Source: an uncultured Oscillospiraceae bacterium (GTDB lineage: Bacteria; Bacillota; Clostridia; Oscillospirales; Oscillospiraceae). Taken from it: a DNA stretch of 35,691 bases. The position numbers and the translations under genes are program-made. The notes beneath the pieces were generated by a model. That model saw only the letters and a list, made by a program, of their open reading frames with translations, ran no database searches and was not told where the DNA came from. Shown in pieces: positions 1 through 10,693 of the stretch. The stretch lies in contig CANQMO010000023.1 of NCBI GenBank assembly GCA_947624985.1, positions 1 through 35,691 on the forward strand, read 5' to 3'. The stretch's first letter is position 1. Each line of letters opens with the position of its first letter.

Positions 1-198
1 TATTTTGCCGCGTTCCCCGATGAAGCGAAACAGTACATGAAAGAAGTAAAAGAAGCTGAACGCGAGGAAGAAAAGCGTCAAGAAGAACACCTTGCAGAAA
101 TTCGCGCTTATGTAAAAAGTCTGTCCAAAAAGGAATTGCAGGACGAACTATTTGAATCACTGCTGCAGCTGGACGAGATATACCGTAGCAGATGGTAG
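1..198 (+). CDS. C-terminal fragment of an unrecognised ICE protein
   Basis: An open frame enters from the left edge and stops with TAG at 196-198, giving the last 65 residues of a protein. The visible part is highly charged, rich in Glu, Lys and Arg, and likely helical or coiled-coil (for example EAEREEEKRQEEHLAEI), ending in YRSRW. No family is recognised. It lies just upstream of the cell-wall hydrolase gene and is separated from it by the first copy of the recurrent palindrome. It is probably an accessory protein of the conjugation module, but function cannot be assigned from this fragment. Confidence 0.7.
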   Translation, partial: YFAAFPDEAKQYMKEVKEAEREEEKRQEEHLAEIRAYVKSLSKKELQDELFESLLQLDEIYRSRW

Positions 199-235
199 TA
201 TTCGTGGCTTTGATAAAGAATAATATCACGTCAAG

Positions 236-265
236 AAATGCGTCTCACCAGGAGACGCATTTTTT
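236..265 (+). repeat. Module-boundary palindrome, copy 1 (terminator-like)
   Basis: An 11-bp stem AAATGCGTCTC / GAGACGCATTT around a 5-nt loop (ACCAG), followed by a T run. It lies between the fragment ending at 198 and the next gene. It is the most diverged of four related copies in the ICE. It looks like an intrinsic terminator for the upstream gene. Confidence 0.85.
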
Positions 266-279
266 CGCGCTCATAGGAG

Positions 280-2328
280 GTGAGCATTATCGCAGAAACC
301 GAAAGCAAGAACATCCGCACCCGTAAAAAGGGCGATATAAAGACCAAAGACAGCGCCAGCCAGGACAAGTCCAGCGGGCCAAAGGGCAAGCCCATCATCG
401 AAAAAGCAGCCCGCGCCGCCGCTGTTGATCAAATCTATCAATCCATCAAGACCCGCCGCGCCGAGGATGGCAAGGCACCCGACGACGAGCAGCGCACCGC
501 CGCGCCCGTGGAAAAGGTGGAACGGGCCGCTGGCGTCACATCGGCGCAGACCGTCGCTGCCATCCAGAATGCCAAGCGCACGACCGCCGCAAAGAAACTC
601 TGGACGGAAAAGCAGACCCGCGCCGCAGAACAGGCAGCCGCCTCGCCGGAGGCCGCGCCCATAACGGCCCCCACGACCCCGCCAGCAGCAACCAACAGCG
701 CCGCGCCATCCGACGCCATTCAAAAAGCGCAACGTATGGCCGCCGCTAAAAAGCTCTGGAATGAGAAGCAGACCCGCGTCGCAGAGCAAGCAGCCGCCTC
801 ACGGGAGGCCGCGCCCACAGCCCCCATATCGTCCCCGGCACCGGGCGGCACCCTCTCCGGTCCCGTCGGGAGCGCGACCCCAGCCAACGTGACCGGGCAG
901 CCGGGCCAAACCACCGCCAGCCTCCCGGCCATCCGGGAGCGAGGAACCTGCGGCACCGCCCCGGCCATCAAGGAGAAACCCCGGCTCGGCCCCGCTGCTA
1001 TCAAGACCCGGCCAGAGACGCGCCGGACTGTCTTTTCCTCCCGGATCTCACCCACGACCCAGAGTGCGGGGAGACAGGCAGCCATCACCAGCGCCAAGAA
1101 ACGCCAGCGCAGGGCGCAGGAGGCCGGGCGACAGCTGCTTGTCCAGCAGACGAAAAAGGCGGCCCGCGCCGCCGCCGTTGCCTCCCGGAAGATCGTGGAG
1201 GCGTCGGCCAAGGCCACAAAAGCCCTTATCAGCGCCCTTGTCGCCCTCCTGGGCGGCAGCGTGTTCATCGCCGTGGTATGCCTCATTTTCCTTGTGGCCG
1301 CCATCGTGTCCTCGCCCTTTGGCATCCTGTTCACCGACGAGCCGGAGGCCCCGGACGCCGTTTCGCTCCCCACGGCCATGTCCCAGATCAACGAGGAATA
1401 CAACGCCCAGCTGGAGGCACTTCAAGCTGGGTATGATACGGTGAACATCCAGGGCAGGCCCCCAAGCTGGCGAAATGTGATAGCCGTCTTTGCGGCCAAG
1501 ACCGCTGCTGCCGACGACGGCATGGACGTTATCACACTGGACGCGGAGCGCGTGGAACGGCTCCGCGCCGTCTTTTGGGATATGACCACCATATCCACCT
1601 CCACGGAGAGCATCGAACACCCGGACACAGACCCGGACGACGGGATAGACGACAGCCATACGGAGAGCGTCTTGACCATCACCATCAACGGGGCCACCAC
1701 CTCGGATATGACGGTGCACTACGGCTTCACCCGCTATCAGGTGGAGGCGATGGAGGCCCTCATGGACGAACTGGAGGAATGGGGCCTGTTTATAGGCGAC
1801 CTTGAAATCTCCGACGCGACGGCCATTGAGGTATGGAACAACCTCCCGGCTGGCCTGTCCAACGAGCGCCGGACGGTGATCCAGTACGCCCTGTCCCTCG
1901 TCGGCAAGGTGCATTATTTTTGGGGCGGCAAATCCCTTGTCCTGGGATGGGACCCCCGCTGGGGAACGTCCACCCAGGTATGGGCCGCAGGCAGCCCCAC
2001 AACGGGAACATACCGGCCCTACGGCATGGACTGTTCCGGCTTTGTGGACTGGTGCTTTTACAATCAGAGCGGCGGCGAGTACATCATCGGTCACGGCGGC
2101 GGCTGTATCGCTCAGCACAACGCTTGCCGGGCCATCAGCTGGGGCGAGGCAATCCCCGGCGACCTTGTGTTTTACCCCGGCGACTCCCACATCGGGATCG
2201 TATGCGGCTGGGACGCCAACGGGAACATCCTCATTGTCCATTGTGCCAGCGGTTCCCTAAACGGCGTCGTTATCACGGGCAAGAGCGGCTTTGTCACCAT
2301 CGGCAGGCCCGTGTACTACGGGGAGTAA
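280..2328 (+). CDS. Membrane-anchored NlpC/P60 (C40) cell-wall hydrolase of the ICE
   Basis: This is probably the conjugation-associated peptidoglycan hydrolase that opens the wall for the transfer channel, in the position of Tn916 Orf14. The N-terminal 310 residues are Ala/Lys/Arg/Pro-rich, with two 33-residue repeats (95-127 and 147-179). A membrane segment follows at about 315-345, then an extracytoplasmic linker of about 190 residues. The C-terminal NlpC/P60 domain has the catalytic Cys585 in DCSGF, His637 in SHIGI and a third His654 in VHCASG. Unlike Tn916 Orf14, no second lysozyme domain is evident. The start is unclear: the GTG at 280 overlaps the Shine-Dalgarno AGGAGG at 275-280, so initiation at ATT 286 or ATC 289 in the same frame may be real. 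Palindrome copies flank the gene on both sides. Confidence 0.88.
   Translation: MSIIAETESKNIRTRKKGDIKTKDSASQDKSSGPKGKPIIEKAARAAAVDQIYQSIKTRRAEDGKAPDDEQRTAAPVEKVERAAGVTSAQTVAAIQNAKRTTAAKKLWTEKQTRAAEQAAASPEAAPITAPTTPPAATNSAAPSDAIQKAQRMAAAKKLWNEKQTRVAEQAAASREAAPTAPISSPAPGGTLSGPVGSATPANVTGQPGQTTASLPAIRERGTCGTAPAIKEKPRLGPAAIKTRPETRRTVFSSRISPTTQSAGRQAAITSAKKRQRRAQEAGRQLLVQQTKKAARAAAVASRKIVEASAKATKALISALVALLGGSVFIAVVCLIFLVAAIVSSPFGILFTDEPEAPDAVSLPTAMSQINEEYNAQLEALQAGYDTVNIQGRPPSWRNVIAVFAAKTAAADDGMDVITLDAERVERLRAVFWDMTTISTSTESIEHPDTDPDDGIDDSHTESVLTITINGATTSDMTVHYGFTRYQVEAMEALMDELEEWGLFIGDLEISDATAIEVWNNLPAGLSNERRTVIQYALSLVGKVHYFWGGKSLVLGWDPRWGTSTQVWAAGSPTTGTYRPYGMDCSGFVDWCFYNQSGGEYIIGHGGGCIAQHNACRAISWGEAIPGDLVFYPGDSHIGIVCGWDANGNILIVHCASGSLNGVVITGKSGFVTIGRPVYYGE
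562..816 (+). repeat. Two 99-bp direct repeats inside the hydrolase gene
   Basis: Bases 562-660 and 718-816 encode 33-residue units, both containing AAKKLW followed by EKQTR and AEQAAAS, with ends PEAAP or REAAP. The 57-bp spacer is Pro/Ala/Thr-rich. They form part of the basic cytoplasmic N-terminal tail before the membrane segment. Repeat-length variation by recombination is plausible. Confidence 0.8.
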
Positions 2329-2329
2329 G

Positions 2330-2360
2330 AAAAATGCGTCTCACCGTGAGACGCATTTTT
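2330..2360 (+). repeat. Module-boundary palindrome, copy 2 (terminator-like)
   Basis: A perfect 14-bp stem (AAAAATGCGTCTCA / TGAGACGCATTTTT) with a 3-nt loop CCG, directly after the hydrolase stop codon. It is likely an intrinsic terminator of the hydrolase transcript and the left boundary of the cargo segment. Confidence 0.88.
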
Positions 2361-2528
2361 CCCGTGGCCGCATTTCACGCGCTTGACAACACTTGCTTGA
2401 CGGTGTTTTCCCAAAACATGACAAATGCGTGAATATACCCTATAGTAATACAAGGGAGGTACAGTGAATTTAAACCATTTTGATTCTCATGACGATATAA
2501 TAAGTGTGCAGCACAAAGGAGGGTTACG

Positions 2529-3056
2529 ATGGTAGATCTACACAAGAAGAATAACGTCTGTCCGCATTTTCTGGTACGCGAATACGGTGACGAAATATAC
2601 AAATTCTGCCGCCGCATTACCTTCAGCAAGGAAGATGGTGAGGACCTCTTTCAAAACACCTTTCTTAAAATATTGGAAACAGGTAAAGAAACCACGGATC
2701 AATCCAACATCCGGCAATTTCTGTATCGGACTGCATTGACCTGTTGGAAGGATCAGAAGCGGAAATACGCTCGTCGAGAACGGATTGCGCCAAGTGTGCC
2801 TTTTGAGGAAAACACTGATGTTCAAAGCGGCAACATGGAAGAAGTGTTGCTCGACATGGAAGAAAAAATGCTTGTAAGGAGTATTGTAGCTTCTTTGCCG
2901 GAGAAATACCGTTTGCCCACTGCACTGTACTACGGCGCAGAAATGAAACTGAATGAAATAGCGGAAACTCTATCGTTGCCAGTCGGAACCGTAAAGAACC
3001 GACTTTTCACCGCCCGACAAATGGTGAAGGAGGAATTGATGAAATATGAAAGATAA
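2529..3056 (+). CDS. ECF-type RNA polymerase sigma factor (ICE cargo)
   Basis: This 175-residue protein has sigma region 2 at about residues 18-50 (GDEIYKF, EDGEDLFQNTFLKIL) and region 4 at about 121-170 (SLPEKYR, LNEIAETLSLPVGTVKNRL), with no region 3. The ATG at 2529 follows AAAGGAGGG with good spacing. The 3' end overlaps the next gene by 11 bp, the usual sigma/anti-sigma translational coupling. It should direct core polymerase to promoters responding to whatever the neighbouring membrane protein senses. Codon use is more AT-rich than in the chromosomal part of the window. The 168 bp upstream contain a TATAAT-like box at 2496-2501 but no convincing -35, so its own promoter is not assigned. 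Confidence 0.9.
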   Translation: MVDLHKKNNVCPHFLVREYGDEIYKFCRRITFSKEDGEDLFQNTFLKILETGKETTDQSNIRQFLYRTALTCWKDQKRKYARRERIAPSVPFEENTDVQSGNMEEVLLDMEEKMLVRSIVASLPEKYRLPTALYYGAEMKLNEIAETLSLPVGTVKNRLFTARQMVKEELMKYER

Positions 3057-4689
3057 GTACAACGACATCGAGCAGGTGCTTCGCAAATCCTATGATGATG
3101 ATTATCTTCCTACGGACTCTTTTTTAGAACACGTCGAAGCAGTTATGAGGGCAACAGCCGAAGCAACCAGTCTGCCGGAGAAGGATTCTCCCCATCATGC
3201 AGGTGCCCATGCCGCTCGCCGTCGGGTGCTGGGCGTAGCCATAGCAGCGACAGTGACCATGCTGCTGGGCGTAACAGCCTACGCTGTGTACCAGGCCCGG
3301 ATTCAGGACTATCAACTGCCAGAGAACACGACGACGGTCGATATCGTCAGCGGCGAGACCTCTATCGCAACCACTTCTCCCGCGTCCCGGGTGAGTCTGT
3401 CGCTGGTGGGCTACCAGGGCACGCCGGAGTATGAGGCATTTCTGGAGTGGGAAACGCTGCAGGAGAGATGGTGGGAAGAAAAAGCAACCATCCGGCAGGA
3501 GAACAACCAGGATGATTCATGGCATGAGACGCCGGACAATTATTGCTTCTATTACTCCGCCGTCACCCAATCCCAGGCGAGGGAACTGGACACCATCATG
3601 AAAAAATACGGCCTATCGCCGCATGAGCATAGGTCTACCCTGTTGCGCGAGGATAGGTATACCACCCTAGGCCTGGAGAGTCTGTGTCAGCTTCTGGATA
3701 TGGAACCCTTTATCTACGGGGAGTGGGACGCATATAGCGGCTATGTCTATGACGACGGCACGTTCAAGCTGCATGGGTCTAAAAACACGGAGGACTGGGA
3801 CGAGTATATGGCATCTGGTTTTACCATGTTTTTGAGTGTTAAGGGCTCCTTCACCACTATTTTCGCCCATCTGCCTGCGGACTATGACCAGTGGAACTAT
3901 ACAGTAGGCGGTCAGGAGTTGACGCTGGCCCTCTCTAATGAGGGCGGCATTATCTTGGCAGAGACGCCGGGGGCGTATATATACTTGTCAGATCATTCCC
4001 AAAGCCGGGAGGATCTGGAGGCATTCGCGGATGCCGTTGACTTCGATGCCTTGGCGGAGAAATTCGACGGCACACCTCTGGACCTGACCGAGGGTATGAA
4101 AGAGATGGATGAAAAATACGCCGCCTGGGAGGACGACTATATGACCCGGCACAATCCAGCGCCGGAAGATGCCGCAAGCCTTCCCTCTTTTGATAGTGAA
4201 GAGGAAGAAAAAACCTGGATTCTTGCCCAACTGGGGGACCTGGACTGGCCGGCAGAGGGGCCGGACGGCTATGGGTTCCTTTGGCAACAAACAATCTGCC
4301 AGCGTGACGGGTATCGGCAGCGGGACGGACAGGATGTGGCCGTGTACGCCTTGTACAGCAGCAGCTATTATTCCAGAGAAGCGGACAACAGCGGCTTGAG
4401 CCTTATCTACAAACGGGTGTTCTCCGACCCGGCGCTGACGAAGAGCGTCAATCAGTGGGAACTGGATAGCTGGCGTCAGATTTACCCAGAGAGCGTAGAG
4501 CTTGACCTCTGCGGTCATGAGGCACTGTATATACCGGAGGACATGAACGGCCCCCAGAGCACGCTTTGCTGGCTGGATCAGGAGCGCGATTTGTTTTTCC
4601 AACTGTGTGTCCCCGGCGAGAAAGAGCCTTTGGAGACGTTGCGGGGCTATGCAGAAGAGTTGATTTCAGTCATGGACGGAACTTCATAA
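3046..4689 (+). CDS. Receptor-like anti-sigma factor, single membrane span (ICE cargo)
   Basis: A 547-residue protein whose start lies inside the sigma gene. The short cytoplasmic N-terminus (about 1-60) would be the sigma-binding part. A single membrane helix lies at about 61-83 (VLGVAIAATVTMLLGVTAYA), followed by VYQ and an extracytoplasmic domain of about 460 residues rich in Trp, Tyr and acidic residues. The juxtamembrane VTAYAVYQ is shared with the chromosomal anti-sigma at 22,783, so the N-terminal architecture is the same. The large ectodomain is not one I recognise. No catalytic motif is visible. I infer ligand or envelope-stress sensing on the host surface. The TraX-like gene follows 12 bp later and is probably co-transcribed. 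Confidence 0.75.
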   Translation: MKDKYNDIEQVLRKSYDDDYLPTDSFLEHVEAVMRATAEATSLPEKDSPHHAGAHAARRRVLGVAIAATVTMLLGVTAYAVYQARIQDYQLPENTTTVDIVSGETSIATTSPASRVSLSLVGYQGTPEYEAFLEWETLQERWWEEKATIRQENNQDDSWHETPDNYCFYYSAVTQSQARELDTIMKKYGLSPHEHRSTLLREDRYTTLGLESLCQLLDMEPFIYGEWDAYSGYVYDDGTFKLHGSKNTEDWDEYMASGFTMFLSVKGSFTTIFAHLPADYDQWNYTVGGQELTLALSNEGGIILAETPGAYIYLSDHSQSREDLEAFADAVDFDALAEKFDGTPLDLTEGMKEMDEKYAAWEDDYMTRHNPAPEDAASLPSFDSEEEEKTWILAQLGDLDWPAEGPDGYGFLWQQTICQRDGYRQRDGQDVAVYALYSSSYYSREADNSGLSLIYKRVFSDPALTKSVNQWELDSWRQIYPESVELDLCGHEALYIPEDMNGPQSTLCWLDQERDLFFQLCVPGEKEPLETLRGYAEELISVMDGTS

Positions 4690-4701
4690 AGATATATCAT
4701 T

Positions 4702-5634
4702 ATGGAATATACAATTGAAAACTCAAATGGTGAAACGGTGCTGAAAAACTCTAAAGGGTTATCCGCCTTTCAACTGAAGGTTATTGCCCTTATCTTCATG
4801 ACCCTAGATCACATTGGCGCAATTGCCTTTGAGGTGCCTTTTGTGATGCAGTATCGGTCATATCTGCGTACCATCGGGCGGCTGGCTATGCCCATTTTCC
4901 TGTTTTTGCTGGTGCAGAGCATCCGCCACACCCGGAGCAAAAAGCGGTTCGTCCTGCGGTTGTACCTAGCAGGAATGGGGATAGGGCTTTTCGTCACCGC
5001 CATGAATCAGCTTTTCGGGGAGCGGTTCAATTACTTCACACCGGGCAACATCATCTTTTCGTTTTTCTACGTTGCCCTGTACGCCGTACTCATCGAGACG
5101 ATGATAAAAGCAGGCAGGGAAAAGAACTGGTGGACGGTGGGTATATGTGTATTAGGTCTGGCAATCTCGCTTATACCAACAGTAGTATACTTGCCGTTGC
5201 TGGAGATGACATACGCCCTCAACCTTGACGGGTCCAGTCGGGTGGGTTTTCTTTTGAGCGGCCTGCTGGAAAGTATTCTGCCGTCGTTCAGCTCGGTGGA
5301 TTACGGCATTGGTGTGATCATTTTAGGTGTGGCTATGTATTTTGCTGGGACGAAAAAGCGTCAGTGTGTGGTGTTCGCTGTTTTCTGTGCGGTATGCTAT
5401 GCGGGTGCCTTGGCCACGCAGGTCTGGGGTCTGTACGACCTAATGCAGATACAGACTTATGGCTTTGCCATGACCTTTTTAGATCGGAGCCAACTAAAAA
5501 TGTTCTGGGCACTGCCGTTCATGGTCCTCTACAATGGTCAACGCGGACATTCTGGCAAATGGTTCTTCTACATATACTATCCGTTGCATAGAGAACTAAT
5601 TTTCCTGCTTGCTGGAACCTTCTTATCAAATTAA
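4702..5634 (+). CDS. TraX family membrane protein (ICE cargo)
   Basis: A 310-residue polytopic membrane protein. The N-terminal motif LKVIALIFMTLDHIGAI, followed by LRTIGRLAMPIFLFLLVQ and a C-terminal YYPLHRE, is characteristic of the TraX family (named for F-plasmid TraX, which N-acetylates pilin) within the broader membrane acyltransferase fold. Eight or more hydrophobic segments are visible. In Gram-positive bacteria TraX homologues have no F-pilin to modify, so the acceptor is unknown; a surface polymer or protein is a reasonable inference. It lies immediately downstream of the sigma/anti-sigma pair and probably shares its transcript, making it a candidate output gene of that regulator. 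The ATG at 4702 has only a weak ribosome site. Confidence 0.82.
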   Translation: MEYTIENSNGETVLKNSKGLSAFQLKVIALIFMTLDHIGAIAFEVPFVMQYRSYLRTIGRLAMPIFLFLLVQSIRHTRSKKRFVLRLYLAGMGIGLFVTAMNQLFGERFNYFTPGNIIFSFFYVALYAVLIETMIKAGREKNWWTVGICVLGLAISLIPTVVYLPLLEMTYALNLDGSSRVGFLLSGLLESILPSFSSVDYGIGVIILGVAMYFAGTKKRQCVVFAVFCAVCYAGALATQVWGLYDLMQIQTYGFAMTFLDRSQLKMFWALPFMVLYNGQRGHSGKWFFYIYYPLHRELIFLLAGTFLSN

Positions 5635-5656
5635 GCAAATAGAACTCTTGCTTTTG

Positions 5657-5758
5657 ATGAAACCTCTAGCGAACTGGAGGCGTAATGCGTACTTCGGCAT
5701 CGTTGTACCGCAAGACTTTAGTGAACGGCCAAAAGACGGTTTAGAACAGTTCAAATAG
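5657..5758 (+). pseudogene. Short orphan reading frame, probable gene remnant
   Basis: A 33-codon frame from ATG 5657 to TAG 5756 begins MKPLANWRRNAYFGIVVPQD. Its composition is protein-like rather than random, but no ribosome site precedes it and I recognise no family. It lies 20 bp after traX in a stretch crowded with hairpins. It is best read as the end of a gene lost during cargo exchange, though a small real protein cannot be excluded. Confidence 0.35.
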
Positions 5759-5795
5759 TATACAAAACTAATTCGCAATAGGGCGGGCAACAAAA

Positions 5796-5835
5796 AATTA
5801 TGCTCCGTCCCCTTAACGGGGGACAGAGCATAATT
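5796..5835 (-). terminator. Strong hairpin terminator, minus-strand oriented
   Basis: The stem pairs AATTATGCTC and GTCCCC with GGGGAC and GAGCATAATT (one internal mismatch), with loop TTAACG. Read on the minus strand it is followed by six T. It would stop leftward transcription from the regulatory module. On the plus strand it could also stop traX read-through weakly. Confidence 0.75.
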
Positions 5836-5931
5836 CACCACCCGATAGTTACAAAAAGTTTCATTTATTGCTTTTTGTTTACAACTTCTTATACGACAAA
5901 CTGACATGGACAAGCCGCTGGCGACCCCATA

Positions 5932-5970
5932 GAAGTACCCGCCTGCGGCTCTGATGCAGGCGGGTACTTC
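5932..5970. terminator. Long perfect hairpin, probable bidirectional terminator
   Basis: A 15-bp perfect stem (GAAGTACCCGCCTGC and its complement) around a 9-nt loop. It is only 20 bp from palindrome copy 3. Its T tract is interrupted (TTCATT), so termination strength is uncertain. Confidence 0.6.
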
Positions 5971-5990
5971 TTCATTATCCAGACACCGCC

Positions 5991-6019
5991 AAAATGCGTC
6001 TCACCATGAGACGCATTTT
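5991..6019. repeat. Module-boundary palindrome, copy 3
   Basis: A perfect 13-bp stem AAAATGCGTCTCA / TGAGACGCATTTT with loop CCA. It sits 14 bp beyond the stop of the minus-strand XRE gene, yet its loop has the same orientation as the copies that follow plus-strand genes. It marks the right boundary of the cargo segment. Confidence 0.88.
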
Positions 6020-6033
6020 GACACGCAAAGGCG

Positions 6034-6429
6034 TTATTCGGCGGGCGTTTCTCTGGCCTTTATCAGCGCCTTGGTAGTAGCCTCAACGGAAGCCTCAACT
6101 ACCATACGCTCCTTCTTATCCAGCAAATGAATAAGTGTATCAATGTGCCTGCTGCAGTCATCATCTGGCTGGCCTTCCCTATGAAAAAACTGATCCACAG
6201 AAATATTGAACATCGTCACCAGTCGGACAAACGTATCAAAGCTAGGATTAGGTGCTTTGCTCTCCTCGTCCTTACTTTCGTTCCCATGATTCTCAAGGTT
6301 GATTATGGTCCGATCCCCACGGCAGACCAACTCCGCCAGATACGCTTGTGTCCAACCCCTTGCTTCTCTGGCCTGTTTGACAGCCTGGCCAAAGCCTTCG
6401 TAGTCAAACAAAAGGCTATTATCACTCAT
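6034..6429 (-). CDS. XRE/HTH_3 transcriptional regulator (Tn916 Orf9-like)
   Basis: A 131-residue protein with an N-terminal lambda-repressor-type helix-turn-helix at about residues 9-70 (FGQAVKQAREARGWTQAYLAEL, with recognition-helix region GDRTIINLE). A C-terminal tail of about 60 residues probably dimerises. The start MSDNSLLFDYEGFGQ (ATG at 6429) fits relatives I know better than the longer frame opening at 6468; MYGMSDN (6438) is an alternative with a GGGTG 4 nt upstream. Its divergent position before the Orf7/Orf8-like genes is that of Tn916 Orf9, a repressor of the downstream regulatory operon. A large inverted repeat just upstream (6471-6495) is a candidate operator. Confidence 0.85.
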   Translation of the reverse strand: MSDNSLLFDYEGFGQAVKQAREARGWTQAYLAELVCRGDRTIINLENHGNESKDEESKAPNPSFDTFVRLVTMFNISVDQFFHREGQPDDDCSRHIDTLIHLLDKKERMVVEASVEATTKALIKARETPAE

Positions 6430-6470
6430 ACCATACATCACCCGAAACCATTTTACAGGCCATGCCACGG

Positions 6471-6495
6471 CATGAAAATGTAATGAATTTTCATG
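6471..6495. promoter_or_regulatory. Inverted repeat, candidate operator of the XRE regulator
   Basis: Arms CATGAAAAT (6471-6479) and ATTTTCATG (6487-6495) are perfect 9-bp inverted repeats with a 7-bp spacer. A further partial half-site ATGAAATT follows at about 6500. It lies 42 bp upstream of the repressor start in the divergent control region, so autoregulation is likely. This is inference from position and symmetry. Confidence 0.55.
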
Positions 6496-6843
6496 TTATA
6501 TGAAATTTTATTACAGGTTCCTCCGTTTTATACTTCTCTAAAATCAAACGATCTGCCCGACGGCAGAAAAGAAAAAAACCGCCGTCGAGCAGTCAAGTTG
6601 TCATATCCTCATGCCAGAACACGGCGGTTTTGAGAAATCAAGCCGTCGTGTTCTGTTTTTCCGGGCCTTTGGCTGAAATCCTTTATTACGGCGGCTTGTG
6701 GAGGTAGCCGCCGTGATCCCAATATCATATCGGCAAGGGCATATTGAGGACTTCCCATCAAAAAAAGCCTGTGCGCCTCCCGGTGCGATTGCACCTTTGA
6801 ATATGAAACCAAAATTCACCCGGACGGCAATACAGTTTCACCT
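6496..6843. other. Noncoding control region with several hairpins
   Basis: No credible gene is present. Visible structures are CTGCC/GGCAG at 6553-6566, GACGGC/GCCGTC spanning about 6559-6586, the long hairpin at 6616-6654, and ACGGCGGC/GCCGCCGT around 6684-6711. Several arms share the CGGCGG/CCGCCG core and could pair in alternative ways. This suits a leader RNA with attenuation upstream of the Orf7/Orf8-like genes. Confidence 0.5.
6616..6660 (+). terminator. Hairpin with T tract, terminator in the ICE leader
   Basis: A 12-bp stem (AGAACACGGCGG / CCGTCGTGTTCT, one G-T wobble) with a 15-nt loop, followed by GTTTTT. It precedes the regulatory genes by about 330 bp, so it would attenuate transcription coming from the repressor side. 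Confidence 0.6.
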
Positions 6844-6878
6844 ACCCGTATAGTTTATCGCTGTACGGGTCTTTTTTT
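6844..6878 (+). terminator. Attenuator-type terminator before the Orf7-like gene
   Basis: The stem ACCCGTA / TACGGGT is followed by C and seven T (6872-6878). It sits 115 bp upstream of the Orf7-like start with no gene end on the plus strand nearby, which fits transcription attenuation in the leader. Confidence 0.7.
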
Positions 6879-6962
6879 GCCCTTTTTGCAAAAAAGGCCC
6901 CGGCAACTTCGGCACTTTGGCCTTTCCCATTGTAGAGGGGTTACGAAAGGGACAATCACCCG

Positions 6963-6986
6963 CTTTCGCGGCTGCGAAAGGAGGTG
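6963..6986 (+). promoter_or_regulatory. Hairpin overlapping the ribosome site of the Orf7-like gene
   Basis: CTTTCGC (6963-6969) pairs with GCGAAAG (6974-6980), whose last bases are the start of the Shine-Dalgarno AAAGGAGGTG at 6977-6986. Folding would hide the first half of the site and could dampen translation. Confidence 0.45.
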
Positions 6987-6993
6987 AGGAACC

Positions 6994-7422
6994 ATGAGTG
7001 ATCCTGTACGCGACCAATGGCAGAAACGCTGCGCCTTCAACGCCTTTTGTAAAAAGGTACTGAAAAACGAGGCGATCAACGCTCACCAGGGCATAAACCG
7101 GCAGCAGCTACGGGAGGTGTCGTTTTCCGACCTGTCACCCCAGGAGGAAAACCAGCTTGTCGCCTTTGACGAGTATTTCAAGGACGACGAGGACGAAAAG
7201 ACCTTCTCCGTAGCAGGAAAGGAGATCACAGCCAAGCAGCTTGCCGACGCCCTACACAGCTTGCCGGACGAAAAACGCAGCGCCGTCCTACTGTACTACT
7301 TTTTCGATATGAATGACACGGAGATCGCAAGACTCCAGGGTATTCCGAGAACAACGGTACAGAGCAGACGGACAAGCTCTCTGGAGCTTCTAAAACGCCA
7401 TTTGGAGGAAACGTGCCAATGA
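6994..7422 (+). CDS. Sigma-70 region-4-like regulator (Tn916 Orf7-like)
   Basis: A 142-residue protein ending in a sigma region-4 helix-turn-helix (about residues 88-135: HSLPDEKRSAVLLYYFFDMND, EIARLQGIPRTTVQSRRTSSL). The N-terminal half is charged and lacks a recognisable region 2. In Tn916-type elements the homologous Orf7 works with Orf8 to activate recombination and transfer gene expression. The ATG at 6994 has the strong ribosome site AAAGGAGGTG, partly enclosed in a hairpin. The stop overlaps the next ATG, so the two genes are translationally coupled. Confidence 0.87.
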   Translation: MSDPVRDQWQKRCAFNAFCKKVLKNEAINAHQGINRQQLREVSFSDLSPQEENQLVAFDEYFKDDEDEKTFSVAGKEITAKQLADALHSLPDEKRSAVLLYYFFDMNDTEIARLQGIPRTTVQSRRTSSLELLKRHLEETCQ

Positions 7423-7670
7423 ACACTCTGATCAATGACCCGGCGAATGAGGAGCGCGGATTGCTGCCCTACCCGGTGATCGTCGCGGCCACACGGGGCG
7501 ACCCGGAGGCCATGATGACGGTCGTGCAGCATTACGAAAGCTACATATCCAGCCTGTCCATGCGAAAGCTCCGTGACGAGCGCGGCAACTTCTATTATGG
7601 CATAGACATGGACATCCGGGACCGCCTGCGTGCCAAGCTCATGCGGGCCGTTCTCTCCTTTAACGTCTAG
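7419..7670 (+). CDS. Helix-turn-helix protein (Tn916 Orf8-like)
   Basis: An 83-residue protein starting MNTLINDPANEER at ATG 7419, which overlaps the TGA of the preceding gene (ATGA) and has GGAGGA upstream; the GTG at 7413 is less likely. The segment YPVIVAATRGDPEAMMTVVQHYESYI followed by DIRDRLRAKLMRAVLSFNV is typical of the small helix-turn-helix domain proteins encoded after Orf7 in Tn916-like ICEs, resembling a partial sigma region 2. It probably acts with the Orf7-like protein to turn on ICE genes. Confidence 0.87.
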   Translation: MNTLINDPANEERGLLPYPVIVAATRGDPEAMMTVVQHYESYISSLSMRKLRDERGNFYYGIDMDIRDRLRAKLMRAVLSFNV

Positions 7671-8024
7671 GTCACACCACCCACCTGTGCGCCCTTTCAG
7701 CAGGAGCCGAGCCTTCTGCGCTTGAAAAAGAAAGCGGCGTAGCGACTGACGGCGCAGTATAGGGCGAATCAGACACGTTCCATGTGCGTCGGAGCCATAC
7801 GGCGGGTGCGCCACAACGCCCCAGGAGGGCAGAGCGAGAAACACCGCGCCGCACACAGCTTTGGCAAAGCTGCCGGCCATGAGGCGTACATGGGTCAGAT
7901 ACTTGCGTCGGCTATGCGTCACAGCGTAGGACGCCCTGCCATGAGCATGGGGGGAGGCTCACAACCTATGGAGCGGCTTGCCAGCCGCCGCCTGATCTTG
8001 TCCTGAATATCAATCACCAAGCGG
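7671..8024. other. 354-bp noncoding, partly structured region
   Basis: No coding frame here has a ribosome site or convincing composition. Local hairpins include AGCTTTG/CAAAGCT at about 7858-7872 and GCGGCT/AGCCGC at about 7972-7987, plus GC-rich segments that could pair at longer range. It follows the Orf8-like stop and ends at palindrome copy 4. It could be a long 3' untranslated region, a small RNA or a DNA site. I recognise no known RNA family. Confidence 0.4.
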
Positions 8025-8054
8025 AAAATGCGTCTCACCATGAGACGCATTTTT
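8025..8054 (+). repeat. Module-boundary palindrome, copy 4 (terminator-like)
   Basis: A perfect 13-bp stem AAAATGCGTCTCA / TGAGACGCATTTT with loop CCA, followed by another T. It separates the regulatory module from the recombination module. Confidence 0.88.
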
Positions 8055-8062
8055 CTGCTCTT

Positions 8063-8086
8063 GGCCCGCTGAAAAGCGGGCCTTTG
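8063..8086 (+). terminator. Second hairpin terminator before the recombination module
   Basis: GGCCCGCT / AGCGGGCC with loop GAAA, followed by TTTG. It follows palindrome copy 4 by 8 bp, so the regulatory transcript is doubly insulated from the recombination genes. Confidence 0.65.
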
Positions 8087-8168
8087 TGTTGACATCCATT
8101 CGGGACAAACGGCCAAAACATAGTGGCCGAGCCATTATACATAGACTGGGGAGAGGAGGTGTCCTATT

Positions 8169-8438
8169 ATGATAGATCTGGCAGAACTAGAGCGAATGGA
8201 GAAAGCCAGCCGTGATTTATTTGAAAGCGGCAGCTTGACGGACATTTCAAGCATAACGATGATCGGTGGCGACACGCCTATGCAAAAGCTGGAAAGCCTG
8301 TCGGCACAGCTGAAGAATCTGTACTGTTTCCGCGTGGGCAACACCCCGGTCATGATCTCATTCAAAGAGAATGGGCCGACCCTGGAGGAATCTGTGACCC
8401 GGTATTTCACTGGGCTGAAACAAGGGGTACAAATTTGA
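8169..8438 (+). CDS. Small ICE protein upstream of the recombinase, possible directionality factor
   Basis: An 89-residue protein starting at ATG 8169 after AGGAGG (8154-8159). The first 45 residues are helical and polar. The C-terminal part (FRVGNTPVMISFKENGPTLE followed by ESVTRYFTGL) resembles the short TnpW-type proteins found beside serine recombinases of Clostridia elements. Its position corresponds to that of xis in Tn916, so a role as recombination directionality factor is plausible but unproven. Its stop codon overlaps the -35 box of the recombinase promoter. Confidence 0.65.
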   Translation: MIDLAELERMEKASRDLFESGSLTDISSITMIGGDTPMQKLESLSAQLKNLYCFRVGNTPVMISFKENGPTLEESVTRYFTGLKQGVQI

Positions 8439-8463
8439 CGCTGACGGCTCTTCCTGATACAAT
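8435..8463 (+). promoter_or_regulatory. Sigma-A type promoter of the serine recombinase gene
   Basis: TTGACG at 8435-8440, a 17-bp spacer and TACAAT at 8458-8463. The predicted transcript begins at about 8470, 32 nt before the TTG start. The -35 box includes the stop codon of the small upstream gene. Confidence 0.7.
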
Positions 8464-8501
8464 TAAGATGTATAAAGCGGGAAGAAAAGGAGGCTTCCCC
8501 G

Positions 8502-10199
8502 TTGGCAAGAGTTAGAAGGACAGAGCAGACCAGGGCGGCGGCCAAGCAGATCGTCTGGCGAGTGGGTAAGTATATCCGCCTTTCCCGCGAGGACGGCAAC
8601 GTAGTCTCTGAATCGGTTGTCAACCAAGACAAAATACTGAATGACGAGCTGCCTCGCTTTTTCGAGGACGGTCTGTATGAGGTCGTTGATACCTATATCG
8701 ATGACGGCACCAGCGGCACGACGGACATTGAACGTGAGGACTTTCAGCGCATGGTGCGCGATGTGAAGTCCGGCAGGATCAACTGTATCATCGTAAAAAA
8801 TCTCTCGCGGGCGTTTCGGAACAGTGCAAATCAGGGCTTTTTCCTGGAAGAATTTATCCCCCTATACAGCACACGTTTTATCTCCCTGTACCAGCCCTGC
8901 ATTGACACATACCTAAATCCAGAAGTGGTACACAGCCTAGAGGTCAGCATCACCGGCTTTATGAACGAGCAATATGCCTATAAGACCTCTGCTGACATAC
9001 GCAGGACATTCAAGCATAAAAGGGAGAACGGCGAGTTCATTGGGGCCTTTGCCCCCTATGGGTATCTGAAAGACCCGGAGGACAAAAACGCCCTCATCAT
9101 AGACGAGGACGCGGCACAAATCGTGCGGGATATTTTCACATGGTACGTTTCTGACGGCATGAGCAAGGGCGGGATCGTAAGAAAGCTCAATGAACTGGGC
9201 ATCCCGAACCCCACCGCCTATAAGCGATCAAAGGGCTTCCACTATGAAAACCCTCACGCCAAGCAAAATGATGGATTGTGGTCCATGCCCTCCGTCAGCC
9301 GTCTGCTGCAAAACCCGGTTTATATCGGGGTCATGCGTCAGGGTATGCAAAAGGTCATAAGCTACAAGGTACACAAGCGTACCGCAGTCCCGGAAGATGA
9401 ATGGTACATCGTTGAAAACGCTGTCCCGCCGATCATCAGCAAGGAAGTGTTTAAGGCTGCCCAGAGCTTGCACCAAAAAGATACCCGGACGCCTGCCGGG
9501 AAACAAGAGGTCTATATGTTTGCCGGACTGCTCCGCTGTGCCGATTGCAAAAAGGGTATGTACCGCCATACGTCCAAAAAGCAGGTGTATTACAAATGCA
9601 GAACGCACACGGAAAAGGGAAAGGGTTTTTGTTCCACCCACGCCATCCGAGTAAGCGTTTTGGAATCTGCGGTGCTTGCAGCTATCCAGGAGCAAATCGC
9701 CTTGGTAGAACGCCTAGCTGAAATCGTCGGAGAGATCAATGCGGCACCTGTGATTAAGACAGAATCCGTGAGGCTTAACGCCGCGCTGAAGCAGCGGACA
9801 AAGGAATTGGAGAAAGCTACCGCCCTTGCAGACGGCCTTTATATGGACTGGAAAAACGGTGACATCAGCCGGGACCAGTACCGCCGGATGAAGGTCAAGT
9901 GCGACGAGCAGATCGAACAGCTTGAACAGACGATAGCACAGATCAAGGACGAGTGCGAGACGTTGAGCCACGGCATATCGCCTGACAGCGACCCATACCT
10001 TACCGCCTTTCTCAAACACCGGAATATTACCGCCCTATCCCGTGGCATCGTCACGGAATTGATAGATACCATCTATGTCCATGAGGGTGGGGGACTGGAG
10101 ATCGAGTTTCGGTTTCAAGACCAGTATCGCCGAATCGTAGAGTTCATCGAGAACAATAAAAATGACCTCTACGTTGTCGGCGAAAAAAGTGTTTCGTGA
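8502..10199 (+). CDS. Large serine recombinase (ICE integrase/excisionase)
   Basis: A 565-residue site-specific recombinase that integrates and excises the ICE. The N-terminal resolvase domain (about 20-170) has the nucleophile Ser28 in YIRLSRED and the conserved VKNLSRAFRN region. A recombinase domain (about 190-310) follows, with GAFAPYGY and the NPVYIGV motif. A zinc ribbon uses Cys346, Cys349, Cys366 and Cys377, and a coiled coil lies at about 415-490. The start is TTG at 8502 after AAAGGAGG (8486-8493), spacing 8. The gene ends within about 15 bp of the ICE boundary, as with TndX of Tn5397. Full length, with all expected motifs. Confidence 0.95.
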   Translation: MARVRRTEQTRAAAKQIVWRVGKYIRLSREDGNVVSESVVNQDKILNDELPRFFEDGLYEVVDTYIDDGTSGTTDIEREDFQRMVRDVKSGRINCIIVKNLSRAFRNSANQGFFLEEFIPLYSTRFISLYQPCIDTYLNPEVVHSLEVSITGFMNEQYAYKTSADIRRTFKHKRENGEFIGAFAPYGYLKDPEDKNALIIDEDAAQIVRDIFTWYVSDGMSKGGIVRKLNELGIPNPTAYKRSKGFHYENPHAKQNDGLWSMPSVSRLLQNPVYIGVMRQGMQKVISYKVHKRTAVPEDEWYIVENAVPPIISKEVFKAAQSLHQKDTRTPAGKQEVYMFAGLLRCADCKKGMYRHTSKKQVYYKCRTHTEKGKGFCSTHAIRVSVLESAVLAAIQEQIALVERLAEIVGEINAAPVIKTESVRLNAALKQRTKELEKATALADGLYMDWKNGDISRDQYRRMKVKCDEQIEQLEQTIAQIKDECETLSHGISPDSDPYLTAFLKHRNITALSRGIVTELIDTIYVHEGGGLEIEFRFQDQYRRIVEFIENNKNDLYVVGEKSVS

Positions 10200-10213
10200 G
10201 GGGTTCATAAATA

Positions 10214-10693
10214 AATGCACCTACCGGTCCCACGGGTCCTGTGGCTACTACACCGACGGGTCTCGCGGCCTACGGCGGACGGTATAACGTCACCGGCTCT
10301 ACCCTGGACCTGGCCGCCGGCACGCCGACGCAGGTGCCTTTGGCGGCTACCATGCCGGCGCTTGGCGCGACGTATCCCACCGCCAATGAGATCACCATCG
10401 CGGACGCGGGTGACTATGAGATCAACTATTCCGCTCTGGTGAGCACCACCGGCGGACAGTCGCTGACGCTGGCCGTGCGTGTGAACGACACCGCCGACCC
10501 GTCCGCCACCCAGACTGTAGCGCTGACGGGCGGTGTGGAGACGCCGCTGAGCGGCTCCGTTATCGTGACGCTGGCCCCGGGCGACGTTATCGACCTCGCC
10601 CTGACGTCTCCCAGCGCCGCGGACGTGACGTTCGGCACCGGCCAGACCGCCGCTCTGACGGTAAAGAAGCTGGATGCCCCTGCCGCCGTGTAA
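10214..10693 (+). pseudogene. 5'-truncated collagen-like protein with BclA-type C-terminal domain
   Basis: The frame reads GPTGPTGPVATTPTG and then a domain of about 145 residues rich in Thr, Ala and Gly (starting about NVTGSTLDLAAGTPTQVPLA and ending VKKLDAPAAV). This is the layout of Clostridia collagen-like surface or exosporium proteins with a BclA C-terminal, TNF-like trimerisation domain. The upstream repeats and start are missing because the ICE has inserted within the repeat region. The in-frame stop TAA at 10,208 belongs to ICE sequence. GTG 10,241 could nominally start a 150-residue protein but has no ribosome site. The 5' part of the gene should lie beyond the left end of the ICE. 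Confidence 0.85.

What the first reader, a model, noticed from the sequence alone, without database searches (positions are those of the whole stretch)
236..8054. Four near-identical palindromes divide the ICE into modules
The palindrome AAATGCGTCTC-loop-GAGACGCATTT occurs at 236-265, 2330-2360, 5991-6019 and 8025-8054 and nowhere else that I can see. The copies fall exactly between cell-wall hydrolase, cargo, regulatory and recombination modules. All four have the same loop orientation (CTCACC on the plus strand), even the one at the 3' end of a minus-strand gene, so orientation follows the element, not the gene. They may simply be terminators, but repeated identical sequence at module borders would also let homologous recombination swap the segment between them, and could explain how the cargo slot is exchanged.
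Basis: partly seen in the sequence, partly recalled or inferred. Interest (0 to 1): 0.75.

Follow-up and report, generated by a model that had tools for sequence, protein, structure and literature searches.

The report
Palindromes marking swapped mobile-element modules
Four near-identical 27-letter palindromes in a gut bacterium's mobile element sit at the joints where related elements carry different gene blocks, so they look like shared seams at which the elements trade cargo and even integration enzymes.

Summary
Confirmed: four 27-bp odd palindromes (236-262, 2332-2358, 5992-6018, 8026-8052); no fifth found in the window. They belong to a repeat family of Oscillospiraceae mobile elements: 116 stretches in a scan stopped at its limit, 0 exact matches in viral contigs, 12 or more copies on one 34-kb contig of the same genus.

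All four copies are breakpoints against relatives. Cargo between copies 2 and 3 is sigma/TraX (window, G571) or a binding-protein/permease/two-component set (G645). At copy 4 a 95-99% identical flank meets three different serine recombinases. 26 of 38 merged breakpoints have an end at a palindrome, which covers 1.7% of sequence. Over all loci, alignments of 95% identity or more stop at palindromes 34/68 times, at other hairpins 2/14, at intergenic midpoints 2/33.

Loop orientation is mostly one central base; it differs between homologous sites.

Likely reading: repeats doubling as bidirectional terminator hairpins, recombined through their shared sequence. Unexplained: copies are coherent within an element, and their class tracks an element-encoded ParB-like protein, an untested candidate reader weakened because related palindromes occur without it. 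Exchange is inferred from comparison; no mechanism was shown.

The parts
236..262 (.). palindrome copy 1 (centre ACCAG), between the end of a SWIM-protein-like gene and the NlpC/P60 gene; breakpoint against G571, bin60 contig a and bin100
2332..2358 (.). palindrome copy 2 (centre ACCGT), just after the NlpC/P60 stop; breakpoint against G645 and both bin60 contigs
5992..6018 (.). palindrome copy 3 (centre ACCAT), in a convergent gap between cargo and the minus-strand HTH gene; breakpoint against G645
8026..8052 (.). palindrome copy 4 (centre ACCAT), between the regulatory block and the serine-recombinase block; breakpoint against bin25 and G645 (in G645 the last 15-16 bp before the palindrome also differ)
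1..198 (+). 3' end of a gene that lies in a stretch 92% identical to the SWIM zinc-finger gene region of G645
280..2328 (+). NlpC/P60 cell-wall hydrolase module, shared by the related elements
2529..5634 (+). exchangeable cargo: sigma factor (2529-3056), 547-aa protein without Pfam match (3046-4689), TraX-like protein (4702-5634)
6034..6468 (-). HTH regulator (start codon uncertain), conserved flank of copy 3
6994..7670 (+). sigma-70 region-4 protein (6994-7422) and HTH_16 protein (7413 or 7419 to 7670), in the conserved flank of copy 4
8169..10199 (+). DUF6870 protein and large serine recombinase; other, distantly related recombinases stand here in relatives

Best explanation
The palindromes are copies of a dispersed 27-bp repeat carried by integrative elements of Oscillospiraceae. 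SHOWN by comparison: they sit mostly in gaps between genes, more in tandem and convergent than in divergent gaps; their sequence class is uniform within most elements and differs between elements; and they mark many of the points where otherwise 90-99% identical elements change from one gene block to another. INFERRED: many copies work as bidirectional hairpin terminators that close a transcription block. INFERRED: because the repeat is often the only sequence that unrelated blocks share, recombination through it (ordinary homologous or short-homology recombination between a resident and an incoming element) swaps whole blocks and leaves one intact palindrome at each joint. INFERRED and least sure: something acting in trans and encoded by the element, of which a ParB-like clamp protein is the best candidate seen, keeps the sequence uniform within each element.
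For: All four window copies are breakpoints against relatives. In nine sequences of this lineage 26 of 38 breakpoints (merged within 40 bp) have an end within 8 bp of a palindrome (29 of 44 before merging), while positions within 8 bp of a palindrome are 1.7% of the sequence (ends at sequence ends and inside the NlpC gene, 46 and 44, were set aside). Over all loci, homology stops at family copies in 34/68 (95% identity or more) and 98/186 (90% or more) encounters, against 2/14 and 7/22 at other intergenic hairpins and 2/33 and 9/83 at intergenic midpoints (both directions of each pair counted). Of 138 homology ends found near palindromes, 90 lie between the near edge and 7 bp past the far edge. 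47 of 79 recurrent flank clusters are joined through a palindrome to 2 or more different partner flanks. Different cargo and recombinase sets lie beside the same repeats. Terminator signs: RNA folds of -20.6 to -27.3 kcal/mol, z from -5.3 to -7.4; 5 or more T of 8 on the sense side in 66 of 136 tandem copies against 32 on the antisense side, p=2.4e-5; copies in 167 of 366 tandem or convergent gaps against 17 of 92 divergent gaps, p=1.4e-6. Element coherence: 18 of 19 contigs with several listed copies hold one centre class (permuted mean 5.8); within genomes holding both classes, 9 of 10 (permuted mean 2.75) (labels typed, whose list was cut for G654).
Against: 12 of the 38 merged lineage breakpoints are not at a palindrome: four lie 35-36 bp beyond one, at another palindrome on the VirB4 side, one lies 52 bp away and seven about 740-1350 bp away. 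At copy 4 of G645 the 15-16 bp before the palindrome also differ. Most compared sequences are metagenome bins; the set that looks like isolates by record title is small (13 ended, 16 passed at 80% identity or more; 3 and 6 at 90% or more). Pairs are not independent. Breakpoints would also cluster at block ends if selection alone kept whole blocks intact; the hairpin control addresses this only partly. The terminator scan flagged none of the four copies (their T run pairs into the stem), 56 of 136 tandem copies lack a T-tract in either direction, 17 gaps that hold a copy are divergent, and there is no G-U over A-C preference on the transcribed strand (17 to 14, p=0.72). Ordinary terminators would not need a conserved sequence.
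Confidence: 0.6

Rival explanations
1. The palindromes are operator or loading sites of an element-encoded ParB/KorB/Noc-like CTPase clamp (silencing, partition or insulation of the element); terminators and exchange are side effects.
For: Odd palindrome; positions 13/15, which cannot pair inside a three-base hairpin loop, are complementary in 200 of 248 copies. An element of the same genus encodes a protein with ParB_N and a ParB-type HTH right after two copies (L074); a profile of 17 homologues matches Noc/Spo0J/ParB structures, best E 1.2e-19. ParB identity is 43-100% within and 28-42% between palindrome classes (13 class-1 and 7 class-2 rows, some the same gene fetched twice; 4 rows without a palindrome nearby set aside). 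In a tree of 31 rows all 18 palindrome-labelled ParBs fall in one supported group of 22, apart from the 9 others. The HTH region differs between classes. CTCA...TGAG is shared while outer arm positions vary by element.
Against: The coupling protein separates the classes as fully as ParB does, so this may be element lineage. Class-2 ParBs are not one group in the tree: the G657 rows stand beside class 1. In 13 genomes holding mainly other arm variants, a close ParB (67% or more) was found in 2, on a palindrome contig in 1. The window genome has only two weak ParB-like matches; its element is cut at the contig edge. Copies are fewer in divergent (promoter) gaps, unlike KorB operators. Class 3 rests on one protein.
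Confidence: 0.22
2. Dedicated site-specific recombination sites, like pdif modules or integron attC sites, acted on by a recombinase of the element or host.
For: Sharp, repeated joints at a short symmetric site with different modules between sites; pdif modules are a known analogue (PMC6449649, passages read).
Against: No 11-6-11 structure with unlike halves; the centre is one base and is inverted in 7 of 25 homologous pairs, while a strand-exchange spacer should be constrained. No adjacent HSPs in opposite orientation between loci were found, i.e. no sign of an inverted cassette in the held 8-kb pieces. No dedicated recombinase gene was shown to accompany the sites.
Confidence: 0.1
3. Ordinary intrinsic terminators inherited with their genes; breakpoints coincide only because blocks are exchanged as transcription units.
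For: Same gap-type distribution as other hairpins (divergent share 17/181 vs 11/99, p=0.68), T-tract bias, and other terminator-like hairpins seen by eye at the NlpC gene end of diverged elements.
Against: Does not explain one conserved 27-bp sequence in unrelated gaps, nor element coherence, nor why other hairpins stop homology 2/14 against 34/68.
Confidence: 0.2
4. The palindrome itself is a mobile REP- or MITE-like insert that spreads into gaps.
For: Sharp 27-bp limits, presence in many unrelated gaps.
Against: No flanking duplication directly beside the repeat (one weak excess of 4-mers at offset 1, 6 against 1.5 expected). I saw no clean empty site with both flanks intact in the output, which searched held loci only; the nearest case, L040 against L030/L072/L103, lacks the palindrome and some bases beside it and may be a deletion.
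Confidence: 0.15

Closest known systems
pdif/dif modules of Acinetobacter plasmids (PMC6449649, passages read)
   Same: Short palindrome-like sites flank exchangeable gene modules in mobile DNA
   Different: dif sites are 28 bp, 11-bp XerC and XerD arms around a 6-bp centre; here 27 bp, symmetric arms, one central base, no known recombinase
KorB operator OB of plasmid RK2 (PMC11790492, abstract, Main section and passages read)
   Same: Odd palindrome (within ATTTTAGCGGCTAAAAG) read by a ParB-family CTPase clamp on a conjugative element
   Different: OB lies 4-10 bp or 45 to over 1000 bp upstream of promoters; here mostly in tandem or convergent gaps; binding untested; no module exchange is described for OB in what was read
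Terminators with antitermination in conjugation operons: conAn of pLS20 (PMC8955417, abstract and passages read) and Tn916 canT (PMC11658703, abstract and outline read)
   Same: Terminators within conjugative-element transcription units
   Different: What was read does not describe one conserved terminator sequence or module exchange at the terminators
REP/BIME and MITE repeats (recalled)
   Same: Dispersed intergenic palindromes
   Different: No target-site duplication beside the repeat, concentrated in mobile elements, element-coherent sequence

Membership tests
Intrinsic terminator | Stable GC-containing hairpin in RNA | tested here: met
   -20.6 to -27.3 kcal/mol, 0 of 200 shuffles as good in each of five folds
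Intrinsic terminator | T-tract directly after the stem | tested here: inconclusive
   Scan flags none of the four (their T run pairs into the stem); family-wide 66 of 136 tandem copies on the sense side, 32 antisense, 56 neither
Intrinsic terminator | Transcription ends there | not testable with these tools
   no transcript data
dif/pdif module | Two 11-bp arms for XerC and XerD with a 6-bp centre | tested here: not met
   symmetric arms around one central base
dif/pdif module | Different modules between the same sites | tested here: met
dif/pdif module | Xer-dependent recombination | not testable with these tools
   needs experiment
ParB/KorB operator (parS, OB) | Element encodes a ParB-family protein with CTPase-type domain and HTH | tested here: inconclusive
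   Met in relatives; only two weak matches in the window's genome
ParB/KorB operator (parS, OB) | Site class follows protein clade | tested here: inconclusive
   Met by identity for classes 1 and 2 and largely in the tree, but the coupling protein behaves alike and most genomes with other arm variants lack a close ParB
ParB/KorB operator (parS, OB) | Protein binds the site | not testable with these tools
   needs experiment
REP/MITE mobile repeat | Target-site duplication | tested here: not met
   no excess of flanking direct repeats next to the 27 bp; one weak offset signal (4-mers at offset 1, 6 vs 1.5, largest of 300 shuffles 5)
REP/MITE mobile repeat | Precise empty sites | tested here: inconclusive
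   one imprecise candidate, in loci chosen for carrying the repeat
REP (RAYT-linked) | Y1 transposase gene beside the repeats | tested here: inconclusive
   150 of 206 non-redundant adjacent proteins scanned; only the 25 commonest of 125 Pfam families are shown and none is Y1
DNA uptake sequence | Frequent single copies as well as inverted pairs | tested here: not met
   373 of 379 exact arms in the held loci lie within palindromes; in the window 8 of 8

The most novel reading that the evidence does not exclude
Gut Oscillospiraceae elements share a modular code: element-specific 27-bp odd palindromes (AAAN5CTCAN3TGAGN5TTT) between gene blocks, read by an element-encoded clamp or other protein, act as common seams through which ICEs exchange cargo and integrase blocks in one step, so that the repeat class defines who can trade parts with whom.
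Probability: 0.25. Interest if true: 0.82.

Novelty: new variant of a known kind. Interest (0 to 1): 0.62.

Why it matters
How conjugative elements of gut bacteria gain and swap cargo, and switch integration enzymes, is mostly described after the fact. A short recognisable seam would let one predict module limits, trace exchanges and test the mechanism directly.

Tried and rejected
RNA-level selection: no wobble bias in tandem copies. Target-site duplication: none beside the repeat. DNA-uptake-like single arms: 6 of 379. Inverted cassettes between loci: none seen. Rfam: 0 matches at gathering score in 1-10400. Viral contigs: 0 exact matches. Plasmids: no megablast match to 1-10200. Literature: searches and for the literal half-site (three papers, on TP53, bladder cancer and transcription factors by title) listed nothing that by title or abstract start describes this repeat; the library lacks most subscription papers. 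ParB as universal reader: weakened. Gene calls are from my own simple callers (the first was poor and put 125 of 256 copies in coding sequence; the second put 22 of 248 inside genes and 33 at locus edges, both left out of the gap counts), so gap counts are approximate. Counts include both directions of each pair. In one search some breakpoints were counted twice through binning and two overlapping pieces of G645; one search merges them (26 of 38).
Full report
OBSERVATION. The four palindromes are real and at the stated places. The core is 27 bp. Apart from the centre they are identical in both 11-bp arms. The exact arm occurs 8 times in the window and always in these pairs. The backward-read control pattern has no hit in the genome. 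One further exact copy is on another contig (C13:17275) and a variant on C6. The window is one whole contig, so the element is cut at base 1.

FAMILY. They hold, with the own genome, 147 distinct exact copies, and 248 distinct copies when up to three substitutions per arm are allowed. In the window's order 4 of 394 genomes have the exact pattern, the own one included, all in its own family. Viral contigs: 0; plasmids: no match to the element part of the window. Of five other same-genus genomes searched, two have 14 and 12 copies of the slightly loosened pattern and three have none; 12 of the 14 in G571 lie on one 34-kb contig, and a de novo search finds 14 family members in 26 kb of it. The repeat is thus concentrated in mobile elements. 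Genes on that contig include VirB4 (CD1110 type), a coupling protein, and ArdC-like and weakly TrbL-like proteins.

SHAPE. The repeat is an odd palindrome with one central base: the pair at positions 13 and 15 is complementary in 200 of 248 copies, and the central base is C or G in 186 and A or T in 62. So the 'loop orientation' is in essence one base. It differs in 7 of 25 pairs with both flanks homologous, although tandem copies show a skew on the transcribed strand (60 to 26). Two main centre classes exist, AC-n-GT and AA-n-TT. 18 of 19 contigs with several listed copies hold one class; within genomes that hold both, 9 of 10 contigs are pure against 2.75 when shuffled (labels typed). A de novo search found other elements with their own version, for instance AAAGTCCCCTCAATTTGAGGGGACTTT and near copies in G663; of the 12 further region groups in that call fetched around ParB-like proteins, 9 showed no repeated palindrome family. 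A loose pattern that fixes only AAA, CTCA, TGAG and TTT matches 36 of 300 family genomes, the reversed control 1. In held loci the five unfixed pairs are complementary in 202, 174, 179, 197 and 196 of 203 sites, a set dominated by the original arms.

EXCHANGE. Window and G571 are 99% then 97% identical from copy 1 rightwards to the end of the G571 contig, with no match to its left. Window and G645 share the NlpC block (92%) up to copy 2, differ between copies 2 and 3, and are 97% identical from copy 3 on. Between copies 2 and 3 lie sigma factor, 547-aa protein and TraX (window, G571), or a substrate-binding protein, permease, histidine kinase and response regulator among others (G645). In bin60 contig b the palindrome after NlpC is followed by GHKL kinase, LytTR regulator and SLH protein up to a palindrome at the contig edge, whose far side is not held. 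Between VirB4 and NlpC lie a TPR gene (G571) or KilA-N and SWIM genes separated by a palindrome (G645). At copy 4 the 95-99% identical flank continues into three different serine recombinases, those of the two relatives 23-25% identical to the window's; in G645 the 15-16 bp before the palindrome differ too. Across nine sequences of this lineage, 26 of 38 merged breakpoints have an end within 8 bp of a palindrome (29 of 44 unmerged), and such positions are 1.7% of the sequence. The other 12 are four ends 35-36 bp beyond a palindrome at the VirB4 side, where a second palindrome lies, one 52 bp away, and seven about 740-1350 bp away; ends at sequence ends and inside the NlpC gene were set aside (46 and 44).

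CONTROLS. Over all loci, alignments that reach a family copy end there in 34 of 68 cases at 95% identity and 98 of 186 at 90%; at other intergenic hairpins 2 of 14 and 7 of 22; at intergenic midpoints 2 of 33 and 9 of 83 (both directions counted). Ends of homology peak at the far edge: 80 of 138 in the 25-34 bp bins. 47 of 79 recurrent flanks have 2 or more partner flanks. The subset that looks like isolates by title is small but similar (13 ended, 16 passed at 80%; 3 and 6 at 90%). The same joints recur in separate assemblies (SWIM-side to NlpC in G000, G645 and bin60; NlpC to sigma in G000 and G571), which argues against assembly error.

TERMINATOR READING. The copies fold strongly and are rarer in divergent gaps (17 of 92 against 167 of 366), just as other hairpins are. 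In tandem gaps the sense side has a T-tract in 66 of 136 and the antisense side in 32. But 56 of 136 have none, the scan flags none of the window copies, and no wobble preference appears on the transcribed strand (17 to 14). I take the terminator role as likely for many copies, not as the reason for the conserved sequence.

A POSSIBLE READER. G571's element encodes a 563-aa protein with a ParB_N domain right after two copies. Profile search places it with Noc, Spo0J and ParB, and the alignment shows a ParB-type HTH. Identity is 43-100% within a palindrome class and 28-42% between (13 and 7 rows, some the same gene twice); palindrome-bearing ParBs group together in the tree, class 1 as a subgroup, class 2 not as one group. 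Against this, the coupling protein also separates the classes fully, VirB4 and NlpC less so. In 13 genomes with mainly other arm variants only two have a close ParB and one of these is on a palindrome contig. The protein is a candidate, no more.

VERDICT. The finding is real and its bolder half survives its own test: the repeats are seams of module exchange in this element lineage, including exchange of the integrase block. Analogues are Acinetobacter pdif modules and KorB operators, but a defining feature of dif sites was tested and not met, and KorB-type binding was not testable.

Noticed in passing
L074:544-638 and 673-2364: Two palindromes 41 bp apart directly upstream of a ParB-like gene in the G571 element.
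   Followed up: partly
L030 just after 2345; L072 just before 6285; L040 6579-6630: A second palindrome, close to GCCCGGCGGGATCTCCCGCCGGGC, stands beside the VirB4-side copy; breakpoints there fall about 36 bp from the 27-bp copy, and L040 lacks the 27-bp copy at this place.
   Followed up: partly
L181:7838, 10521, 11513, 16025: A different element in G663 has its own 27-bp odd palindrome family with other arms but a CTCAAnTTGAG-type centre.
   Followed up: partly
L217, L218, L222, L227: GCCTCAAnTTGAGGC-type or other related palindromes lie in stretches that also encode large serine recombinases but no match to the two ParB queries at E 1e-4.
   Followed up: partly
window 5795-5836: An unrelated 18-pair hairpin with T-tract on the minus strand at the end of the cargo block.
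   Followed up: no
window 10200-10693: The element's recombinase is followed at once by a BclA_C-type gene, possibly the integration target; attachment sites were not determined.
   Followed up: no
window 650-880: This part of the NlpC/P60 gene is a hotspot of alignment ends between relatives, apparently from repetitive coding sequence.
   Followed up: no
G000:C8:87739-88599 (L232): A second TraX-like gene (69% identical) elsewhere in the same genome.
   Followed up: no
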